This document shows positions 1,712-18,982 of a stretch of 23,954 bases of DNA, in pieces; position 1 is the stretch's first letter, and each line of letters begins with the position of its first letter. The stretch comes from a virus: IMG/VR virus record IMGVR_UViG_3300044731_000494, positions 1 to 23,954 of that record. The stretch is one strand, 5' to 3'. The position numbers and the translations under genes are program-made. Under the pieces are notes generated by a model, which did no database searches, was not told where the DNA came from, and saw nothing but the letters and a program-made list of their open reading frames with translations.

Positions 1712-1960
1712 ATGATCCCCGAGAAGGCACAGGAGATGGACAAAGATTACCTCGACGTGACAATCAGCAGCCTTATCGCCCTCCTTGCCGGATGGCTGGT
1801 TAAAGGGGTGTTCTCTGCCAGCAAGCGCGAGGTCGACGAGCTGCGTCAGGAGATGCGGCACCTTGTCACTACCAGAGCTTTTGACAAAGAGCTGAATGGA
1901 CTACAGGCGCGCTTGGATCGAATTGAAGAAAAGCTGGATAAGATCATTACGGAGAGATAA
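1712..1960 (+). CDS. Membrane-anchored coiled-coil protein, i-spanin-like
   Basis: From the ATG at 1712 the product is 82 residues; a second in-frame ATG at 1736 would give 74. Neither has an ideal ribosome binding site: the AGGAG at 1731-1735 touches the second ATG. The protein has one hydrophobic segment (VTISSLIALLAGWLVKGVF) followed by a charged heptad-rich coiled coil (REVDELRQEMRHL, then LQARLDRIEEKLDKI). An N-terminal membrane anchor plus a coiled coil is the topology of phage inner-membrane spanins, and a lipoprotein lies just upstream, but the length is short and the pairing is an inference. A coiled-coil accessory protein of other function is possible. Its stop overlaps the next start (TAATG). 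Confidence 0.6.
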   Translation: MIPEKAQEMDKDYLDVTISSLIALLAGWLVKGVFSASKREVDELRQEMRHLVTTRAFDKELNGLQARLDRIEEKLDKIITER

Positions 1961-3192
1961 TGAATAAAAAGAGGCTACCTGAACAAACGTGGCAAAATCG
2001 CATCGTGTCCCACGGTGAGCAGCCAGCCAATCAATTCCTTGCTCACGAACTAAACGCTCGTCGACATCCCGGCAAACAACGTGAAGCTTTGCGGGGTTCA
2101 CTTAATGCTGTTGGTTGGGTTGCACCGGTTATCGTTTCTGCACAAACTGGTAAAATCCTTGATGGCCATGCAAGAGTAGAAGAAGCGTTGTCGCAAGATG
2201 AAAATTCGCATGTGCCGTTTATAGAAGTCGATGTCAGCGAGAGCGAAGAGTTACTTATTCTTGGCACGTTTGACCCGATCACCAATCAGGCGACTTATGA
2301 CAAGGAAGCACTCGACAACCTACTGCACAGTATATCAACGGGTGAGGCCGGGTTGCAGGCGTTATTGACCGAACTGGCAGAGCGTGAGGGGCTTTACTTA
2401 GATTCATTGAAGCCCGGTGAAATGCTGGACGCCGAACCGCAGATTGACCGAGCGGCAGAACTGAATAAGAAATGGCAGGTCAAGCCGGGCGACTTGTGGC
2501 AGATCGGTGATCACCGGCTGCTTTGTGGCGATAGTACAAAGGCTGAGGATGTGGCGCGGGTGATGGGAGGAGAAAAGGCGGTGCTTTGCTTGACCGATCC
2601 GCCGTATGGACAGGATCAAGAAGGTGTGCCGAATGACAGCCCCGAAGCCCATGCGCCATTGCTTGCAGGAGTGGCAGCACTGCTACCGCTAAACGAAGGG
2701 ATCGCGCTTGCATTTCAATCGCCGCGCACGTTTATCAATTGGTATAAGCCAATGGAGGCGAACGGCTTTCACTTTGAAAGAATGCTTTGGCTTTACAAGG
2801 CGGCACAATGCACATTCCCGTGGCGAGGATGGATTCTGAAGTCAGAATCCATCCTTGTATTCAGCAAGGGACAGGGGCAATGGCAAGATGTTCATCCCTA
2901 TTCGCATGATTGCTATTATTTGTCAGAGGTGTCGGGCGAACTTAGTCCAGAAATGGGATGGCACGGTTCGGTTAAGCCGTTAAAAGTTGTCACTGATCTA
3001 ATGTCAAGAACAAGCGAAGTCAACGCAATCACGTATGAACCCTTTGCCGGTTCTGGCACAACACTTGTCGCGGCTCAAAACCTAAAGCGCAAGTGTTACG
3101 CCGTTGAAATATCGCCCGACTACTGCACGGTTATACTTGAACGAATGCAAGAGGCTTTTCCGAGCCTATCACTGGAGCGGCTAAATGGCTGA
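1960..3192 (+). CDS. ParB-like domain/DNA methyltransferase fusion
   Basis: A 410-residue protein. Residues 20-130 form a ParB/Srx-like nuclease-fold domain with the motif ILDGHAR (67-72). Residues 175-405 form an amino-methyltransferase of the N4-cytosine/N6-adenine type, with the catalytic DPPY at 213-216 and the SAM-binding FAGSGTT at 362-368; this order (IV before I) is that of the beta class. CGDST (189-193) is typical of the ParB-methylase group. It should transfer methyl groups from S-adenosylmethionine to an amino group of a base in double-stranded DNA. No restriction enzyme is adjacent, so it acts as an orphan methylase. The gene overlaps the small terminase candidate by 8 bases. Its GC content (about 43-47% in sampled lines) and GATC density (7 in 1233 bases) are lower than in the terminase gene, suggesting separate acquisition. 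Target site unknown. Confidence 0.9.
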   Translation: MNKKRLPEQTWQNRIVSHGEQPANQFLAHELNARRHPGKQREALRGSLNAVGWVAPVIVSAQTGKILDGHARVEEALSQDENSHVPFIEVDVSESEELLILGTFDPITNQATYDKEALDNLLHSISTGEAGLQALLTELAEREGLYLDSLKPGEMLDAEPQIDRAAELNKKWQVKPGDLWQIGDHRLLCGDSTKAEDVARVMGGEKAVLCLTDPPYGQDQEGVPNDSPEAHAPLLAGVAALLPLNEGIALAFQSPRTFINWYKPMEANGFHFERMLWLYKAAQCTFPWRGWILKSESILVFSKGQGQWQDVHPYSHDCYYLSEVSGELSPEMGWHGSVKPLKVVTDLMSRTSEVNAITYEPFAGSGTTLVAAQNLKRKCYAVEISPDYCTVILERMQEAFPSLSLERLNG

Positions 3193-4800: not shown

Positions 4801-7245
4801 ATGGGAATCATAGACCGCATCAAAGCCGCCAGCACCGCCTTCCGCTACCCGTCCAATATGACGCATCGGGGCGGCTCGTTCCTCAGTATGGCTCCCCGTA
4901 CATTCCCATACGAGAACACGGATCCCATCGCAAACTCGGCCGTGATCAATACCCTGGCTTGGATCCAGCGCAACTTTATCCAAGCGGAGTTCGAGGTATA
5001 CCGCGAGACGGCCGAGGGCGATGAGACGATTGACGGGCACCCTTTGGAGCGGCTGCTTGAGAATCCCAATGTCGGCTACGATACGCAGTCGTTATGGGCC
5101 GCTACCCTGTTGTCATACCACCTTGACGGTAATGCGTATTGGATCAAGGAAAGAAACGCGCGCGGCTTCGGCGTCCCAACGTCGATCTGGTATGAACCGC
5201 ATTGGTCGATCAAACCGCACTGGCCAGACAATGGATCGGCATTCGTCGACTACTACGAGCGCCGCATCAATGGCACCATCGAGCGGATCCCCATTGAAAA
5301 CGTGGTGCACTTCCGGAACGGCTTGAACCCCGCTAACCCTAGATACGGTCTAGCGCCGCTCAAAGCCGCTCTGCTGCAGGTTTTCACCGATACTGAGGTG
5401 TCACTATGGGTGGCCGCTCTGTGCCGCAATATGGCCATTCCTGGCGTTGTGGTGAGCCCTACAGAGTCGATCGGGATGACGTTCGAGAAGGCCGAGCAAA
5501 TCAAGCAGACTTGGAAACGCAAGTTCGGCGGAGATAACCGCGGCGAGCCGCTGATCCTCGATTTCCAAGCGTCCATCCAGCCAATGGGGTACGATCCGAA
5601 GCAGATGGACTTCGCGTCAATTACCAATCTGGCGGAGTCACGCATATCCGGAGCGCTGGGCATTCCTGCTATCGTTGCGGGGCTGTCGGCGGGGCTGGAT
5701 TCATCGACCTACAACAACCTAGCCAATCTCAAGAAGAGCGCCTTCGAAGAGTGCCTGATCCCAACGTGGTCGACGTTTGAGCGTACCATTACCCGACAGC
5801 TACTGATTGACTTCGAGCGTGATATCGAAAGCGTAGAGTGCGAGTTCGATACCAGTGAGATCCGCGCCCTTCAAGAGAACCAGTCCGAGACGGAAGCTCG
5901 GGCTATCGCTGCATTCACCAGCGGCGTGACTACCCTCAACGAGTGCCGCGAGCAGTTCGGCTATGATCCGGTCGACGCTGGTGACTATTACGTGATGCCA
6001 GCCAACCTCAAGCCGATTACGCCGGATATGGCTCTGACAACACCGGAGCCGCCAGTATCACCGCAAGGCGCGCTACCGCCGGGGCCGGTGAGTGAGGATG
6101 CCGGGGGCAACCCCGTAAAATCCATGCATCCTCACACCTCTTTCAAAAGCGTCGATTGGAACGGCATGACGCTTCGCCGCCAGCCGACTGAGCTGGAAGC
6201 GCGAATGCTCAAGCAGCTCGATGATGCATACCAGCAGGGCAAGGCATCGATGGATGGCGCACTGCTCGCCCTTCGTGGAAGATACTACAACGAGATCATC
6301 GACACACTCGATGAGCTTGATCCGGCAGAGTACTACGCCGCGACGGTGTCGCCGACTGATCGAGACAGGACATTGATCTTCGGACTCCTCTCTGCGCTTT
6401 TCCTCCGTGGCGCAGGCTTGATAATTGAGGAGCTCCGGAATCAGGGCGTGACTGATATTGGTGACCGGTCAGCACGTCCTGATCAAGGTATCTTCAGGAC
6501 AATGGCCGGGGCAATCATTTCGAGGATCGCCAATGACGTGCAAGCGCGTGGTACGGGTGCAGCGATTTCGGCAACGCTCCTCGGTAGACCCGTGGGCGAT
6601 ACAGTCCGCGAGAGCCTGGCTACAGGCTCTACGGCATATATCACGCGCTCTTCTGCAGAGGCGACGAACTGGGCACTATCGCAGGGCCGGGATGCAGAGA
6701 TAGAAGCAAAAGCCGATAGTATCGAGTATCTGGTCTATAGCGCAGTGTTGGACAACAACACATGTGCACCGTGCGGGGATGCTGATGGCATTGGCGGCCA
6801 GCTGGGCGAGATACCCGCCGTCCCTAACCCGGACTGCGCTGGCGGGGCACAGTGTCGATGCGTACATATCCCCGTGGTGGCGACCGAGTTCAAGGCCTTG
6901 TATCGAGGGGTTGAAATCAATCTCAAGCCAACGGCAGGGATGAAGGCCGAAGCTGAACGCGGTCTTGCTTGGCGCAAAGAATACAACCGCGGCGGCACTG
7001 CTGTTGGCGTGGCACGGGCCAGAGACATCAGCAATGGCAAGGAGCTGTCCCCGCGTACCGTGCGCAGGATGTATTCATTCTTTTCGCGCCACGAAGTCGA
7101 CAAGGAAGGGCAAGGCTTCTCGCCCGGTGAGGATGGCTTCCCATCAGCGGGGCGGATTGCGTGGGCACTGTGGGGCGGAGATCCGGGCTATACCTGGGCC
7201 AAGTCGAAAGTAGCGCGAATGAACAAGCTGGATGAGGGAGACTAA
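4801..7245 (+). CDS. Portal protein fused to MuF-like head morphogenesis domain
   Basis: An 814-residue protein, about twice the length of a normal HK97-type portal. Residues 1-400 are a portal protein of the HK97 family (for example HLDGNAYWIKERN, YGLAPLKAAL, LGIPAIVAGL), forming the dodecameric DNA gate. After a Pro-rich linker (about 400-440), residues 445-705 look like an SPP1 gp7/Mu gpF-type minor head domain ending in a cysteine signature: C655-x2-C658, C679, C685-x-C687. Residues 715-805 hold a further segment (RARDISNGKELSPRTVRRM, then PSAGRIAWALWGGD) that I recognise as recurring in phage head-module proteins without known function. The frame is uninterrupted, so the fusion is real in this sequence. 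The ATG at 4801 lacks a clear Shine-Dalgarno sequence; the 46-base gap before it shows no other signal. Confidence 0.9.
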   Translation: MGIIDRIKAASTAFRYPSNMTHRGGSFLSMAPRTFPYENTDPIANSAVINTLAWIQRNFIQAEFEVYRETAEGDETIDGHPLERLLENPNVGYDTQSLWAATLLSYHLDGNAYWIKERNARGFGVPTSIWYEPHWSIKPHWPDNGSAFVDYYERRINGTIERIPIENVVHFRNGLNPANPRYGLAPLKAALLQVFTDTEVSLWVAALCRNMAIPGVVVSPTESIGMTFEKAEQIKQTWKRKFGGDNRGEPLILDFQASIQPMGYDPKQMDFASITNLAESRISGALGIPAIVAGLSAGLDSSTYNNLANLKKSAFEECLIPTWSTFERTITRQLLIDFERDIESVECEFDTSEIRALQENQSETEARAIAAFTSGVTTLNECREQFGYDPVDAGDYYVMPANLKPITPDMALTTPEPPVSPQGALPPGPVSEDAGGNPVKSMHPHTSFKSVDWNGMTLRRQPTELEARMLKQLDDAYQQGKASMDGALLALRGRYYNEIIDTLDELDPAEYYAATVSPTDRDRTLIFGLLSALFLRGAGLIIEELRNQGVTDIGDRSARPDQGIFRTMAGAIISRIANDVQARGTGAAISATLLGRPVGDTVRESLATGSTAYITRSSAEATNWALSQGRDAEIEAKADSIEYLVYSAVLDNNTCAPCGDADGIGGQLGEIPAVPNPDCAGGAQCRCVHIPVVATEFKALYRGVEINLKPTAGMKAEAERGLAWRKEYNRGGTAVGVARARDISNGKELSPRTVRRMYSFFSRHEVDKEGQGFSPGEDGFPSAGRIAWALWGGDPGYTWAKSKVARMNKLDEGD

Positions 7246-8142: not shown

Positions 8143-9486
8143 ATGACAAAACTTCAGGAGAAACTGATTGAGCTGGACGGGCTCAAGGCCGCACAGAAAG
8201 CGGCTTTTGATGCTCACCCGGACGTTACCACGATCCCCGCTGACAAGCTGACGGAAATCAAAGGCCGCAACGAGCAGATCGCCACACTGCAGACTGAAGT
8301 CAAGCAGCTGGAGGAGATCGAGTTAATGAAGAGCGCGGCGAGCACGTATAGCCACAGCGCAACGCCGTCCACCAAAGCGGATGCCGTTATCCCTGCCCCG
8401 GCGATTGAGTTCTCGAGGGTCAGCAAGGTGAAGAACTTCAAGGGCACCGTGGCGGGAAAGTCTGCTGATGAGCGGGCCTATCGCTTCGGCAAGTGGTTCA
8501 AAGGCGCCGTGGTTGGAGATTCGGTTTCCAAGGCGTGGTGTGATCAGAACGGCATTCAGACGAAAGCTCTGAGCGAGGGGACGAACTACCTCGGCGGGTA
8601 CCTTGTTCCGCCGGAGTTCAGCACTGACATCATCGACCTGCGCGAGACCTACGGCGTTGCCCGTCAGGTTGCGCGAGTAGTGCCGATGTCGTCGGATACG
8701 CTGACAATTCCCCGCCGCACGGGTGGCCTGACTGCGTACTTCGTCGGCGAGGCGTCGACCATCACGGACAGCAACAAGACTTGGGATCAGGTCAACTTGG
8801 TCGCCAAGAAGCTTGCCGCTCTGACTCTCTGGTCAAGCGAGCTCAACGAGGATGCAATGATCTCCATCGGCGATGACCTTGCCGGTGAGATCGCTTATGC
8901 GTTTAGCCAGAAAGAGGACGAATGCTACTTCAACGGCGATGGTACCAGCACGTATGGTGGCATCACCGGCGTCCGCTCGAAGCTGCGCAATGTTGATGGC
9001 ACGATTGCGAACATCAAGGGGCTGCAGGTGGCCACCGGCAATGCCTACAGCGAGATCATCCTCGGCGACTTTCACGGCGTTCTCGGCAAGCTGCCGCTCT
9101 ACGCTCGCAATGGTGCTGTGTGGATTATGTCGGCGACGTTCTTCGACACGGTGGCCCACAAGCTGCAGACGGCTGCAGGCGGCAACACGGTGGTCGACAT
9201 CGCCAATGGTGGCGTTGCTCGCTTCTTGGGCTACCCGGTTGTACTCAGTCAGGTAATGCCGACGACTGAGGCTAACTCGCAGATCTGCGCGCTGCTCGGC
9301 AACTTCCGCCTCGGCTCTACCTTCGGCGATCGTCGACTGCTCTCGCTGGCTCTGTCCTCGGAGTACAAGTTCGCCGAGGATCAGCTTGCCATTCGGGGCA
9401 CGGAGCGCTTCGACATCAACGTCCACGACGTCGGCAACACGACTGCTGCCGGGCCGATCGTTGGACTCATCACGGCTGCTGGCTAA
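8143..9486 (+). CDS. Major capsid protein, HK97 fold
   Basis: A 447-residue capsid protein. The first ~60 residues are a charged coiled coil (delta domain: EKLIELDGLKAAQK, QIATLQTEVKQLEEIE) expected to act as internal scaffold and be removed by the protease encoded just upstream. The folded part begins near TKALSEGTNYLGGYLVPPEF and continues with features of the HK97 family: VARVVPMSSDTLTIPR, an E-loop-like region GGLTAYFVGEASTIT, DQVNLVAKKLAALTLWSSEL and DECYFNGDGTSTYGGITG. It polymerises into the icosahedral shell. The ATG is preceded by AGGAG at 8134-8138 overlapping the protease stop. Its TAA stop forms the first bases of the unusually long ribosome binding site of the next gene. Confidence 0.95.
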   Translation: MTKLQEKLIELDGLKAAQKAAFDAHPDVTTIPADKLTEIKGRNEQIATLQTEVKQLEEIELMKSAASTYSHSATPSTKADAVIPAPAIEFSRVSKVKNFKGTVAGKSADERAYRFGKWFKGAVVGDSVSKAWCDQNGIQTKALSEGTNYLGGYLVPPEFSTDIIDLRETYGVARQVARVVPMSSDTLTIPRRTGGLTAYFVGEASTITDSNKTWDQVNLVAKKLAALTLWSSELNEDAMISIGDDLAGEIAYAFSQKEDECYFNGDGTSTYGGITGVRSKLRNVDGTIANIKGLQVATGNAYSEIILGDFHGVLGKLPLYARNGAVWIMSATFFDTVAHKLQTAAGGNTVVDIANGGVARFLGYPVVLSQVMPTTEANSQICALLGNFRLGSTFGDRRLLSLALSSEYKFAEDQLAIRGTERFDINVHDVGNTTAAGPIVGLITAAG

Positions 9487-9500: not shown

Positions 9501-9947
9501 ATGAATAACCTGAAAAACATCAAATCAACTGTCCTGCTGGTGCCTGCTACCGTGACACACGGGGCGACCGCAACAGCTAACCTTGACTGCCTTGACGCCG
9601 GATCTGCGGAGATCATGGTGACTCTCGGAGCGTTTGCCGGTGGTACAAACGGCACAGCTCCGTCGGCAATCAAGATCTCTCAGAGTGATGACACCGTTGT
9701 CACCAACTTCACCGAGATCACGGCGCTCTCGACTGGTGCCGCGGCTGTTGGAGCGTCCGAGTCGGTACGCTTCTTCGTCGATCGTTCGAACGGCAACCGC
9801 AAGCGGTACCTGCGGCTAGAGGTCACTGTTCCGGCTGGCTCAACGAACAACAACATCCCTATGGCCGCCGTCGGCTTCCTCGACAAGCTCGATGAGGCTC
9901 CTTCGGGAACGGCGGAGTATGGTAGCACCGTAGTCAAGGAGGTCTAG
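9501..9947 (+). CDS. Probable head decoration/accessory protein
   Basis: A 148-residue, mostly beta-rich, Thr/Ala/Gly-rich protein (KSTVLLVPATVTHGATATAN, FFVDRSNGNRKRYLRLEVTV, STNNNIPMAAVGFLDKLDEA). I recognise no catalytic motif. It lies directly after the capsid gene, where many phages encode a decoration or head-stabilising protein, and it has the strongest ribosome binding site in the window, consistent with high copy number. The function is inferred from position, size, composition and expected expression. It could also be a head fibre base or another small virion protein. Confidence 0.7.
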   Translation: MNNLKNIKSTVLLVPATVTHGATATANLDCLDAGSAEIMVTLGAFAGGTNGTAPSAIKISQSDDTVVTNFTEITALSTGAAAVGASESVRFFVDRSNGNRKRYLRLEVTVPAGSTNNNIPMAAVGFLDKLDEAPSGTAEYGSTVVKEV

Positions 9948-9950
9948 TCA

Positions 9951-11150
9951 ATGAAGCTGAACCTGGGTGGAGGCTTGCAAAAGATTCCGGGTTTCACGAC
10001 TCTCGACCGTCAGACTGGGCAGGAGGTTTTCCCGCTTCCTGCCTATCCTGACGCTTCTGTTGATGAAGTACGCGCTTCTCATATCCTCGAGCACTTCGGA
10101 CACCGTGAAGCCGTGGACGTCTTGCGGGAGTGGGTACGCGTATTGAAGCCGGGCGGGATCCTACGGATTGCCGTGCCTGACTTTGACTGGCTGAGACAAC
10201 ATGCGGACGATCGCAATATTCCGATTGAATCATATCTGATGGGGGGCCAGACAAATGACGATGATGTCCATCGGAGTATATACACGGAGCGCAAGCTGCG
10301 TGACATGATGCGGTATGTCGGCTTGACTGATGTCACTCGCTGGACGTCAGAGATCCAAGACTGCGCGGCGTTGCCAGTATCCTTGAATCTGCAGGCCATC
10401 AAGCCCGCCAATATGACGCAGCTTGAGGACGGCAGGATTGAGGTAAAGGCCAAGGTGGCCGCAGTGATGAGCGTCCCGCGGCTGGGCTGGAATGATCACT
10501 GGGGCGCAGCGTGGACAGCACTGCGATCATCCGACTTCAACATTCCGCTCTATCGCTTTGGCGGCGCATTCTGGGAGCAAGGCATACAGCGCGCGCTCAA
10601 TCAGCTACTGGCCAACGGCACGGAGTGGGTGATTACGCTCGATTACGACACGTTATTTGGGCCGGAGGATGTCAAAGAGCTGTTGACGCTTGCGGCGCAA
10701 TATCCGGACGCTGATGCAATCGTTCCCGTGCAAGTGAAGCGCAACAACGAGCATTTCTTGTTCTCGATGAAGGATGCATATGGCAACTTACGCCGAGAAG
10801 CAACGCTCGACGACTTCTCCGATGATCTGACGCTGATCGAAACGGGCCATTTCGGAATGACGTTGATCAAGCTCGAAGCGTTGAAGCGAGTGCCTAAGCC
10901 GTGGCTATGGTCACAGCCTGGCCCGTCTGGTGACTGGGATGATGATCGCGTTGATGCGGATATCTACTTCTGGCAGAAGTGGAAAGCAGCCGGTAACACG
11001 GTCTATCAGGCGAATCACATCAAGTTGGGTCATATTCAGGTAGTCGCTAGCTGGCCTACAAATGACTGGCAAATCAAGCATCAATACCTGTCAGACTGGT
11101 CGGAGACCGGCAAGCCAAAGGAGTGTAGACTTGAAGATCAAGCTGATTAG
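9951..11150 (+). CDS. Methyltransferase-glycosyltransferase fusion
   Basis: A 399-residue two-domain protein. Residues 1-155 form a class I SAM-dependent methyltransferase: motif I LNLGGG (3-8), ASHILEHFGHREAVDVLREW (42-61) and LKPGGILRIAVPDF (65-78). Residues ~165-380 look like a GT-A glycosyltransferase: AVMSVPRLGW, then WVITLDYDTLFGPEDV with a DxD-type metal/nucleotide-sugar motif DYD at 231-233, DADAIVPVQVKR, HFGMTLIKLEAL and an acidic DWDDDRVDADIYFW. It may glycosylate, and possibly methylate, a capsid or host-surface component; the substrate is unknown. A good AAGGAGGT (9936-9943) precedes the ATG. It is placed between the head accessory and connector genes, an unusual spot for enzymes. 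The end overlaps the next gene by 20 bases. Confidence 0.85.
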   Translation: MKLNLGGGLQKIPGFTTLDRQTGQEVFPLPAYPDASVDEVRASHILEHFGHREAVDVLREWVRVLKPGGILRIAVPDFDWLRQHADDRNIPIESYLMGGQTNDDDVHRSIYTERKLRDMMRYVGLTDVTRWTSEIQDCAALPVSLNLQAIKPANMTQLEDGRIEVKAKVAAVMSVPRLGWNDHWGAAWTALRSSDFNIPLYRFGGAFWEQGIQRALNQLLANGTEWVITLDYDTLFGPEDVKELLTLAAQYPDADAIVPVQVKRNNEHFLFSMKDAYGNLRREATLDDFSDDLTLIETGHFGMTLIKLEALKRVPKPWLWSQPGPSGDWDDDRVDADIYFWQKWKAAGNTVYQANHIKLGHIQVVASWPTNDWQIKHQYLSDWSETGKPKECRLEDQAD

Positions 11151-11322
11151 GCCATATGGATTCTCGAGTATTGGCGACGTGCTTGACATCCCCGTGGGAG
11201 TCGCGCAGTTGCTGATTCAGCGCAAGATTGCCGAAGTATATGAAGAGCGTATATCAAGCGACTGGACAAAGCGACTGACACAGCCGCCAGCGCATAGGAG
11301 GGAGCAGCGTGGCCGCAAGTGA
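11131..11322 (+). CDS. Small conserved-looking head-module protein
   Basis: A 63-residue product from a TTG start at 11131, chosen because AAAGGAG at 11117-11123 lies 7 bases upstream; the earlier in-frame ATG at 11062 would add 23 residues lying wholly within the glycosyltransferase gene. The N-terminal half (KIKLIRPYGFSSIGDVLDI, then VAQLLIQRKIAEVYEE) resembles small proteins often found between capsid and connector genes of phages, with a short beta-barrel-like start and a helix. The tail is basic (HRREQRGRK). Function unknown. It overlaps the preceding gene by 20 bases and the next by 14. Confidence 0.65.
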   Translation: MKIKLIRPYGFSSIGDVLDIPVGVAQLLIQRKIAEVYEERISSDWTKRLTQPPAHRREQRGRK

Positions 11323-11980
11323 TTACGTCACACTCGATCAGGTGAGGGCATATGTCTACCAGTCGCAGGATGCCGATGAAGATCAGCTGATCCGGATCAT
11401 GTCCCGTGCGGCAAGGGTATTTGACGCGGCTTGCTCTTTGCCTGATGGGTATTTTGCTGCAGGATCTACCGGGCAGACAGCCAGCATCCGGTATTACTGG
11501 GGCACGGGTACGGATTACCTCAAGGTTGATCCGTACCTGCCAACCCCGGCGCCCGTGGTGACAATGCCAACAGGCTTCGCGGTCCTCAACTGGATCGAGG
11601 TAAACCCGTACAAGAACGCGCAGCAGAACACGCCGGGCGAGTTCTTTCTGTCGCGCCGGTACGGTGATGACTACTCAAGCTTTGCGGCATTGAATGAGCG
11701 GCGTGATTACTTCTTCGCGGAGTTTAGCAACCAAGTGGACTATGTCGGCTGGCCTGCTGGGATCCGCGTAGGTGTGACAGCTAAGTGGGGATGGGACAAG
11801 ACGCCGGAAGAGGTACAAGAGGCCGTGCTCGAGACCATCGCCAATATCTGGCGTAGCAAGGATCAGGGCTTCGCGCGGGCCGTGGCGATCGACGGGATTG
11901 CCGTGATCAACCAGCCGCTTCCACCGAGAGCGCAAATGATCGCAGATGGATTCAAGGCGGGGAGGGCAATGTTCGCGTGA
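11309..11980 (+). CDS. Head-tail connector/adaptor protein (gp6-like)
   Basis: A 223-residue protein starting at GTG 11309, preceded by AGGAGGGAG. The N-terminal helix region (VTLDQVRAYVYQSQDADEDQLI, cut here at DEDQLI, followed by IMSRAARVFDAAC) and the later VGVTAKWGWDKTPEEVQEAV, with its W-x-W and 'P-x-E-V-x-x-A' pattern, are typical of HK97 gp6/SPP1 gp15-like adaptors, which bind beneath the portal as a ring. A beta-rich insertion lies between. It would form the neck between portal and tail. Position after the head genes and before tail completion genes agrees. The stop overlaps the next start by 4 bases. Confidence 0.8.
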   Translation: MAASDYVTLDQVRAYVYQSQDADEDQLIRIMSRAARVFDAACSLPDGYFAAGSTGQTASIRYYWGTGTDYLKVDPYLPTPAPVVTMPTGFAVLNWIEVNPYKNAQQNTPGEFFLSRRYGDDYSSFAALNERRDYFFAEFSNQVDYVGWPAGIRVGVTAKWGWDKTPEEVQEAVLETIANIWRSKDQGFARAVAIDGIAVINQPLPPRAQMIADGFKAGRAMFA

Positions 11981-16754: not shown

Positions 16755-17180
16755 ATGAGCGCAATGTATGACAAGGCAAAGGAATCACTGCTGTCGCAGA
16801 ATCCAAGCATCGACTTCGACAATACCAGTGTCCCGCTAAAGATCGCGCTGGTGGGCGGTGGATATGTGCCTAGTTTCGCCGTCACTGGCCATCAGTACTT
16901 CTCGAGCTTGGGAACCAATGCCGTCCGCACTGCGGCACTTGCGTCGATCTCATTGACTGGCGGCGTATTTGACGCGGCTGATGTGACGTTCACCGCGGTC
17001 TCAAATACACATCCGCAGATCACGCAGCTGGTGATCTATGCCGACACGGGCACAGCCAGCAACTCCCCGTTGATTTGTCAGATTGACTCGGCGTCGACCG
17101 GGCTTCCAATCACGCCCAACGGTGGGGATATCACCATCAGCTTCGACAATGGCACCAACAAGATCTTCCGGCTGGTCTAA
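16755..17180 (+). CDS. Conserved phage tail-module protein, unknown role
   Basis: A 141-residue beta-rich protein. The start (MYDKAKESLLSQNPSIDFDN), KIALVGGGY, the 'HQYFSSL' region, LTGGVFDAADVTFTAVS, LVIYADTGTASNSPLICQID and the end GLPITPNGGDITISFDNGTN followed by KIF recall a family of small structural proteins found widely in tail or head modules of siphoviruses. I am confident of the resemblance but not of a function; a tail tip or decoration component is likely. AGGAGA at 16741-16746 gives a good ribosome binding site. The stop overlaps the next start (TAATG). Confidence 0.7.
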   Translation: MSAMYDKAKESLLSQNPSIDFDNTSVPLKIALVGGGYVPSFAVTGHQYFSSLGTNAVRTAALASISLTGGVFDAADVTFTAVSNTHPQITQLVIYADTGTASNSPLICQIDSASTGLPITPNGGDITISFDNGTNKIFRLV

Positions 17181-18982
17181 TGGCATATCGTTCCCGACAT
17201 TGGCAGGTCTTCGATGAGCACTGGTTCCAGCGCAATCAGCGCTGGTTGCGGTGGTGCGTCAATATGTCGATCGTCGGGCGATGGTTTCGCAGGATCCTGT
17301 CATTGCGACTGGCAATGCCCGTCACATTGATCACGCCTGATGCCGTCCATTATCGCGAGGATGGCCTACAATCGATCGCACACTGCTATCCCTTCCCTTA
17401 CCATAGCCGGGCCATTTATGACGCGCTGAAGCCGCTTTGGTGGGGGATGCATTACTGGGACGAACTGATAGCAGATCGATGGCTCCCGGAGCTGTCATTC
17501 GGCTTTGACCAGCTTACAGTGTATACCGGCAAGACGCAGGTACAAGATTTTGATGGCACTATTACGTCTATTGCAAACACGTATTTTGATGCGCGACAAG
17601 GCAATGAACAAGCACAGCTTGTTGCAAGCATAGGAATCAGTGACAACGTAGATGCCATTTTAAGCTTTGAAGCGTCACGTTCAGGATCTAATGAGTTTAC
17701 TGTTTCGCGTAGTTATTTGCGCTTCAATTTATCATCTATTCCTATTGGTAATCGGGTCACAGGCAGCAATCTGTATATTGCACCGTTAAGCGTTCAAAAT
17801 CATTCTGGGTTTTTTGCCGTTATCAGCAGTTGGCCTGCGTTAGATGGTCAAACTACGCTCACCAGTAGTGATTGGGCGACGTCGACTGTAACGGCGAGTA
17901 GCACGTCACCATTACGTTTAGGTGCATATTCCTTGACTACGCTGAATAATTACGTGTTTACGACGCCTGATTATGCGCCAGGATTTGCTCTAAACGCGAA
18001 TGGGTTAGCATACCTACAAGGTCGGGCTGGCACATATGCCAATTTATGCGTTAGACATAATCGAGATACTGACAATGTGGCACCAGTTGGCACGTCACTT
18101 ATCACGTTAGCCACTTTTGCCGCATCTGAATATCGCATTGGCAGCACGTATTACGGTCCATATCTAGAGGTCACATACCAGCGCGTTGTTCTGGCCAATG
18201 GCTTTACCGTGACTGCGGTGTTTGGTTTGCCGACGCTCACACAGACTCAGCCCATAGTCACACCTGTCGGCTTTGAAGTGACTGTCACCTTTGGCCAGCC
18301 AGCTTTGCGCGGATCGACTACCACGGTCAATCTCAACGGCTTTGTCGTTACTGCTACCTTCGGCACCGTGCAAGGCTCGACGATACAGGCCATCGGGCTT
18401 GCCGTCCCTGTCACCTTTGGCACTCCGCAGATACCGATCATTCAGGCAACCGGCTTGCCGATTACCGTGACGTTTGGGGAAGTGGCGTTAGTACGCGGGC
18501 AGATTGTGCGGCCAAATGGATTCGCGGTTACTGCGACATTTGGTACTATCACGGTGGGCGCCGTGCCGTGGATAGTCTCTCCTGCTGGCATACCAATCAA
18601 TGTCCAGTTTGGTTTTGTTGCGATGGAGTCGCCTTACCCGGATGGCGAGCAATTCACCGGGCCATATATCGCCAGACTCATCGATCAGCCGATCCAATTC
18701 GATAGCGTTACGTATGAATACGAAGACGGCACCGCAACGGTAAACGTCCAGCCTGCTGGCTTGCGTCAATGGGTGCTGGAGTATGAGGGATTGACGGAAG
18801 CAGAACTGAGCCAGCTCGTCAATCACTACAACGCAATGCGCGGAAGATCGGCCACGTTTTCATTCTATCATCGCCGGGATAATGTGACATATACCAATGT
18901 TCGATACGCCTCAATGTCGATCGACAATCGTTCTCGCAAGTGGGTCAACGGCGCGACGGTGGTTCTGGAGAAAATGCGATAA
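17180..18982 (+). CDS. Mosaic tail protein with adhesin-like insert and repeats
   Basis: A 600-residue protein in four parts. Residues 1-115 are Trp/Arg-rich (WFQRNQRWLRWCVNM, YPFPYHSRAIYDALKPLWWG), probably the part docking to the tail. Residues ~121-330 form a beta-sandwich-like segment (SRSYLRFNLSSIPIGNRVTG, then LVASIG and YYGPYLEVTY) resembling DNRLRE/CBM96-type adhesin modules. Residues ~339-480 hold seven short repeats with the core G-[FLI]-x-V-T-x-T-F-G. Residues ~490-600 (VLEYEGLTEAELSQLVNHYN) are homologous to the end of the next gene's product. It is likely a tail tip or receptor-binding component. The second part has about 38-40% GC against about 57-62% around it, a sign of recent insertion. 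No enzyme motif is seen. Confidence 0.7.
   Translation: MAYRSRHWQVFDEHWFQRNQRWLRWCVNMSIVGRWFRRILSLRLAMPVTLITPDAVHYREDGLQSIAHCYPFPYHSRAIYDALKPLWWGMHYWDELIADRWLPELSFGFDQLTVYTGKTQVQDFDGTITSIANTYFDARQGNEQAQLVASIGISDNVDAILSFEASRSGSNEFTVSRSYLRFNLSSIPIGNRVTGSNLYIAPLSVQNHSGFFAVISSWPALDGQTTLTSSDWATSTVTASSTSPLRLGAYSLTTLNNYVFTTPDYAPGFALNANGLAYLQGRAGTYANLCVRHNRDTDNVAPVGTSLITLATFAASEYRIGSTYYGPYLEVTYQRVVLANGFTVTAVFGLPTLTQTQPIVTPVGFEVTVTFGQPALRGSTTTVNLNGFVVTATFGTVQGSTIQAIGLAVPVTFGTPQIPIIQATGLPITVTFGEVALVRGQIVRPNGFAVTATFGTITVGAVPWIVSPAGIPINVQFGFVAMESPYPDGEQFTGPYIARLIDQPIQFDSVTYEYEDGTATVNVQPAGLRQWVLEYEGLTEAELSQLVNHYNAMRGRSATFSFYHRRDNVTYTNVRYASMSIDNRSRKWVNGATVVLEKMR
17540..18170 (+). other. Low-GC, GATC-poor insert within tail gene
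   Basis: Sampled 60-base lines at 17641 and 17701 have 40% and 38% GC, whereas lines at 17221 and 18901 have 62% and 57%. GATC occurs once in 17521-18160 but six times in the preceding 360 bases. The segment matches the adhesin-like beta domain of the encoded protein, so it looks like a domain swapped in from a source of different composition. Boundaries are approximate. Confidence 0.75.
18194..18625 (+). repeat. Seven degenerate in-frame coding repeats
   Basis: Seven copies of a roughly 20-24-residue unit with cores ANGFTVTAVFG, PVGFEVTVTFG, LNGFVVTATFG, AIGLAVPVTFG, ATGLPITVTFG, PNGFAVTATFG and PAGIPINVQFG. The DNA copies are diverged, so this is an old protein-level repeat. Each unit holds alternating residues suited to beta strands; a fibrous or stacked beta structure between the adhesin-like module and the C-terminal domain is likely. 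Confidence 0.85.

What the first reader, a model, noticed from the sequence alone, without database searches (positions are those of the whole stretch)
9951..11150. Methyltransferase-glycosyltransferase fusion inside the head module
One protein joins a class I methyltransferase to a GT-A-like glycosyltransferase (DYD at 231-233), placed between head accessory and connector genes. Enzymes in this spot suggest modification of a virion protein during assembly, for example a glycan on the decoration protein made from the adjacent gene. Methylated sugars could help evade host or environmental recognition. The two-step modification is an inference.
Basis: partly seen in the sequence, partly recalled or inferred. 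Interest (0 to 1): 0.62.

Follow-up and report, generated by a model that had tools for sequence, protein, structure and literature searches.

The report
Phage head-gene methyl-and-sugar transferase fusion
An uncultured phage carries, between its capsid genes, one protein that joins a methyl-transferring enzyme to a sugar-transferring enzyme; hundreds of environmental virus fragments encode relatives, nearly always in the same slot where the position could be checked, so these phages probably coat their own capsids with modified sugars, although the chemistry has not been shown.

Summary
ORF 9951-11150 (399 aa) is a class I SAM methyltransferase (aa 1-155) fused to a GT-A glycosyltransferase (165-365), with invariant motifs and both halves under purifying selection. 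It lies MCP - g10 - fusion - connector. At least 568 IMG/VR stretches encode relatives, none full length in 50,697 phage records. Where inspected, nearly all sit in the same slot, and the DNA between g10 and the fusion carries mostly glycan enzymes: FkbM-type methyltransferases, sulfotransferases, GDP-mannose dehydratase, once GDP-fucose synthase. The same glycosyltransferase, alone or fused to an FkbM methyltransferase, follows the MCP plus one gene in an unrelated head lineage. The best fold match is STIV A197, an essential viral glycosyltransferase suspected of modifying its capsid protein. Best reading: a swappable virion-glycosylation cassette that builds a methyl-capped sugar on a head protein. 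Acceptor, sugar, and methylation of the sugar are inferred. Virion glycosylation is known in mycobacteriophages; this is a new, widespread variant.

The parts
8143..9486 (+). g09 major capsid protein (HK97 type)
   Evidence: PF05065 E 4.8e-47; phrog_10 E 2.9e-52
9501..9947 (+). g10, 148-aa all-beta (jelly-roll-like) accessory protein; candidate head decoration/cement protein and one candidate acceptor
   Evidence: Model pLDDT 70; middling fold matches that include phage BPP-1 chain 3j4u_H Z 7.8 and Carin1 capsid chain 8cjz_A Z 7.2; follows the MCP in 39 of 40 MCP-baited loci
9936..9942 (+). Shine-Dalgarno AAGGAGG for the fusion gene, inside the end of g10
   Evidence: sequence
9951..11150 (+). 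g11 methyltransferase-glycosyltransferase fusion, 399 aa
9951..10415 (+). class I SAM-dependent methyltransferase domain (aa 1-155)
   Evidence: PF08241 30.4 bits, cut-off 21.2; 1vl5 Z 13.6
10443..11045 (+). GT-A glycosyltransferase domain (aa 165-365)
   Evidence: 2c0n STIV A197 Z 18.2; invariant motifs
10641..10649 (+). DYD (aa 231-233), DxD metal/nucleotide-sugar motif
   Evidence: invariant D231 and D233 in 22 sequences
10953..10973 (+). DADIYFW (aa 335-341), candidate catalytic-base region; role assigned by analogy to GT-A enzymes
   Evidence: D335, D337, F340, W341 90% or more conserved
11062..11322 (+). g12 small gene, true start uncertain; conserved behind the fusion in close relatives
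11309..11980 (+). g13 head-tail adaptor
   Evidence: phrog_442 E 1.7e-7

Best explanation
The gene is the enzyme part of an optional, exchangeable virion-glycosylation cassette in the late head operon. Made together with the capsid and g10, the GT-A half uses a nucleotide sugar (from the host, in some relatives partly phage-made) to glycosylate a head protein, the jelly-roll protein g10 or the MCP, and the methyltransferase half methylates that sugar, giving an O-methyl cap. Related phages replace or add FkbM methyltransferases, sulfotransferases and nucleotide-sugar enzymes, so the surface sugar would differ between them. Shown: fusion, folds, conserved motifs, purifying selection, slot, cargo of glycan enzymes, repeated gain or loss. 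Inferred: that the enzyme is active, that the acceptor is a virion protein and which one, that the methyl goes on the sugar, and the benefit (probably shielding or altering the capsid surface).
For: Folds and motifs. Slot: of 151 distinct glycosyltransferase loci with 2 kb or more upstream, 145 have g10 and 143 the MCP just upstream. Cargo between g10 and the fusion: 72 of 86 ORFs fall in clusters of FkbM or multi-domain MT-GT proteins (51), sulfotransferases (11), GDP-mannose dehydratase (3), GDP-fucose synthase (1) or nucleotidyltransferases (6). Second head lineage (phrog_9953 MCP: L198, L199, L043, L044) with the same glycosyltransferase right after MCP plus one gene, alone or fused to FkbM. 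On an MCP tree of 100 representatives the glycosyltransferase changes state at least 6 times, FkbM 18, sulfotransferase 11, dehydratase 5. Selection. A197 is essential in STIV and suspected to glycosylate the capsid (PMC10551542). Phages that glycosylate capsid and tail tube with their own enzymes exist (PMC11600133, PMC12363180). A fused N-terminal methyltransferase that caps a rhamnan is known in WsaE (PMC2943079).
Against: No enzyme assay or mass spectrometry. The g10 co-occurrence does not identify the acceptor, because g10 accompanies this MCP also without the cassette. No sequence link to the glycosyltransferases of phage Che8. Scans were baited and capped at 80 rows, so the fractions describe sampled loci, not the whole collection. 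The g10 model is of modest confidence.
Confidence: 0.68

Rival explanations
1. The enzymes alter the host cell surface (LPS, capsule or S-layer glycan) late in infection, for example to block re-adsorption or superinfection, and merely ride in the head operon.
For: Glycosyltransferases, GDP-mannose dehydratase, FkbM methyltransferases and sulfotransferases are typical of surface polysaccharide loci; the literature reads such phage genes this way (PMC10980836, PMC7824862).
Against: Slot tied to MCP plus accessory gene in two unrelated head lineages; start signal inside the upstream g10 gene; none of the family hits on the sampled cargo genes is a flippase or a lipid-carrier transferase.
Confidence: 0.2
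2. The methyltransferase half methylates a protein residue and the glycosyltransferase half acts separately, the fusion serving co-delivery only.
For: The acceptor of the methyltransferase is unknown; best family matches are generic methyltransferases.
Against: The weak nearest hits are sugar methyltransferases (D-glucose O-methyltransferase 6uv6, E 0.022; mycofactocin oligosaccharide methyltransferase MftM, E 9e-4, far below its cut-off); a lineage with the glycosyltransferase alone fits the sugar step as the core step.
Confidence: 0.07
3. The glycosyltransferase modifies phage DNA (DNA hypermodification).
For: Phage glycosyltransferases can glycosylate DNA (cited in PMC12619734).
Against: Head-operon slot; no pyrimidine hydroxymethylase among the window genes searched; fold matches are protein and polysaccharide glycosyltransferases.
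Confidence: 0.02
4. A catalytically dead structural or assembly protein that keeps enzyme folds.
For: Position among structural genes.
Against: Ligand and catalytic motifs of both halves are among the most conserved columns across 40% identity.
Confidence: 0.03

Closest known systems
Sulfolobus turreted icosahedral virus A197 (PDB 2c0n)
   Same: Virus-encoded GT-A glycosyltransferase, best fold match of the GT half (Z 18.2); essential; suspected acceptor is the major capsid protein
   Different: No methyltransferase domain; archaeal virus; no sequence match found
Virion-glycosylating glycosyltransferases of mycobacteriophages Che8 and Corndog (Freeman et al. 2023, as cited in PMC11600133 and PMC12363180)
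   Same: Phage-encoded glycosyltransferases, with an O-methyltransferase gene beside them in cluster O, that modify capsid and tail tube
   Different: Separate genes; in Che8 at 56-59 kb, far from the head genes at 0-8 kb; no profile match to this family
WsaE of Geobacillus stearothermophilus (S-layer glycan)
   Same: N-terminal methyltransferase fused to glycosyltransferase; the methyl caps the glycan (PMC2943079)
   Different: Two glycosyltransferase domains, bacterial S-layer rhamnan built on a lipid carrier; sequence relation not tested

Membership tests
GT-A fold glycosyltransferases | GT-A (Rossmann-like) nucleotide-sugar fold | tested here: met
   2c0n Z 18.2, LH3 16.8, SpsA 13.8
GT-A fold glycosyltransferases | DxD motif | tested here: met
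   DYD 231-233; D231 and D233 invariant in 22 sequences
GT-A fold glycosyltransferases | transfer of a sugar from a nucleotide sugar | not testable with these tools
   no assay
Pfam Glycos_transf_2 (PF00535) | score at or above the gathering cut-off | tested here: not met
   22.5 bits against 23.3
class I SAM-dependent methyltransferases | family score above cut-off and fold | tested here: met
   PF08241 30.4 bits, cut-off 21.2; 1vl5 Z 13.6
class I SAM-dependent methyltransferases | SAM binding and methyl transfer | not testable with these tools
   glycine-rich motif and D19 conserved, no assay
mycobacteriophage virion-glycosylation enzymes | detectable sequence relation to Che8 gp108-gp110 | tested here: not met
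   hhalign of A1 against each single sequence, probability 0.4% or less; single-sequence templates limit sensitivity
virion-glycosylation systems | glycan on a virion protein | not testable with these tools
   no mass spectrometry
WsaE-type capping enzymes | methyltransferase N-terminal to glycosyltransferase in one chain | tested here: met
WsaE-type capping enzymes | two glycosyltransferase domains | tested here: not met
   one GT-A domain in 399 aa

The most novel reading that the evidence does not exclude
Environmental phages of at least two head lineages carry a fast-changing capsid-glycan cassette (methyl-, sulfo- and fucose-type sugar enzymes) in a fixed slot behind the capsid gene, so that virion surface sugars vary like bacterial O-antigens, and many phage genes now listed as host-directed auxiliary metabolic genes (GDP-mannose dehydratase, sulfotransferase, FkbM) in fact decorate the virion.
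Probability: 0.45. Interest if true: 0.8.

Novelty: new variant of a known kind. Interest (0 to 1): 0.62.

Why it matters
If right, capsid glycosylation, shown so far in a few cultured phages and in STIV, would be common among uncultured phages and chemically diverse, and the fixed slot gives a simple marker for it. It offers a testable function for phage GDP-mannose dehydratase and sulfotransferase genes that are now reported as auxiliary metabolic genes or as of unclear function (PMC10980836, PMC10580990).

Tried and rejected
Co-occurrence of g10 and the fusion as evidence for the acceptor: scans baited with the fusion or with g10 showed them together throughout, but a scan baited with the MCP found g10 in 12 of the 13 loci that lack the glycosyltransferase, so the tight pairing was a bait effect. 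Thr23 of g10: Thr in 92-100% of loci with the glycosyltransferase against 12% without, but picked after the fact, and only 3 to 5 independent pairs on the tree, not significant. Two alignments (g10 family A2, MCP A3) were too divergent for a collection scan. A sequence-profile search of the PDB with A1 gave nothing at E 0.01. g10 has no relative in phage records at E 1. Host: full-length relatives in genome contigs lie on mostly short contigs of MAGs from unrelated phyla, so no host is assigned. Freeman et al. 2023 is not held; it is cited through other papers. DNA glycosylation and a dead structural protein were considered and put low (see rivals).

Full report
The window is a whole IMG/VR record of 23,954 bases, held as one contig. 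It holds a late operon on the + strand: terminase, portal, protease, MCP, g10, the fusion, connector genes, tail genes.

The fusion. ORF 9951-11150 encodes 399 aa. The gene starts 3 nt after the stop of g10, with a perfect Shine-Dalgarno inside g10; its GC content does not stand out, and promoter-like sites in the region are no more than chance gives, none of them on the + strand between MCP and connector. Pfam sees a methyltransferase and, just under the cut-off, a family 2 glycosyltransferase. The AlphaFold2 model (pLDDT 84, pTM 0.72) gives a class I methyltransferase and a GT-A domain; the best match of the latter is A197 of the archaeal virus STIV, followed by human lysyl hydroxylase/glycosyltransferase LH3, mimivirus R699, B4GALNT1 and the wall teichoic acid enzymes RmlT and TarP. 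Ligand and catalytic motifs are among the most conserved columns across 22 proteins at 40-96% identity, and dN/dS is about 0.06-0.14 in each half where not saturated.

Distribution. Among 50,697 phage records only partial matches appear, and g10 gives none. In genome contigs, full-length relatives occur on six MAG contigs (L048-L053), L054 has a version with an FkbM domain between the two halves, and most further hits are to the methyltransferase half alone.

Slot and cargo. In the mapped loci the order MCP, g10, optional cargo, fusion, connector is nearly constant. The cargo between g10 and the fusion is mostly glycan chemistry: FkbM methyltransferases (some fused), sulfotransferases, GDP-mannose dehydratase, in one case followed by GDP-L-fucose synthase (L123; NCBIfam E 3e-149, 496.5 bits against a cut-off of 500), and nucleotidyltransferases. 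In several loci a GDP-mannose dehydratase lies just before the MCP. In another lineage the glycosyltransferase has no methyltransferase partner (L205-L259). In a head lineage with an unrelated MCP (phrog_9953) the same glycosyltransferase follows MCP plus one gene, alone (L198, L199) or fused to an FkbM methyltransferase (L043; L044 lacks upstream sequence).

Control. The g10 scan suggested an obligate pair. Baiting with the MCP instead gave 40 non-redundant loci with 3 kb downstream: 27 with the glycosyltransferase, 13 without, 12 of the latter with g10. g10 is thus a general partner of this MCP and the enzyme cassette an optional insert; versions in which g10 is followed directly by the connector exist (L267, L285). 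On an MCP tree the cassette changes state at least 6 times and its partner enzymes FkbM and sulfotransferase more often.

Mechanism. The most likely reading is glycosylation of a head protein during late expression, with methylation of the sugar. The slot, the glycan cargo, the second head lineage and the A197 match support the virion as target; a host-surface target remains the main rival. Which protein is the acceptor is open. Precedents are the capsid and tail-tube glycosylation of mycobacteriophages, STIV and, for a methyltransferase fused in front of a glycosyltransferase, WsaE.

Limits. Scans were baited and capped; the HMMs used for mapping were built from members of the set; g10 is modelled with modest confidence; the MCP tree is a quick one with several long branches; no biochemical data exist.

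Noticed in passing
window 1960-3192: ParB-like N-terminal part joined to an N6/N4 DNA methylase.
   Followed up: no
window 4801-7245: Portal protein (aa 47-385) with a weak Mu-F-like stretch (620-689, below cut-off) and a C-terminal part matching phrog_2859.
   Followed up: no
window 17180-18982: Tail-region protein with repeated 'VTVTFG'-like segments in the translation; no DNA tandem repeat found.
   Followed up: no
L307, L310, L311, L316, L318-L322: Two tandem g10-like genes after the MCP, without the glycosyltransferase where enough sequence is held.
   Followed up: partly
L092 and L093, from 17345; L110, from 18815: A second glycosyltransferase/methyltransferase copy further downstream; in L092/L093 the order of the domains is reversed.
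   Followed up: no
L034 2056-2682, L048 1549-2220, L204 6865-7536: Nucleotidyltransferase (NMN-adenylyltransferase-like in L034) next to the sulfotransferase in the slot.
   Followed up: partly
L113 8907-10001, L130 8850-9989: Heptose-adenylyltransferase-like protein in the slot (tested for L113; L130 by clustering).
   Followed up: partly
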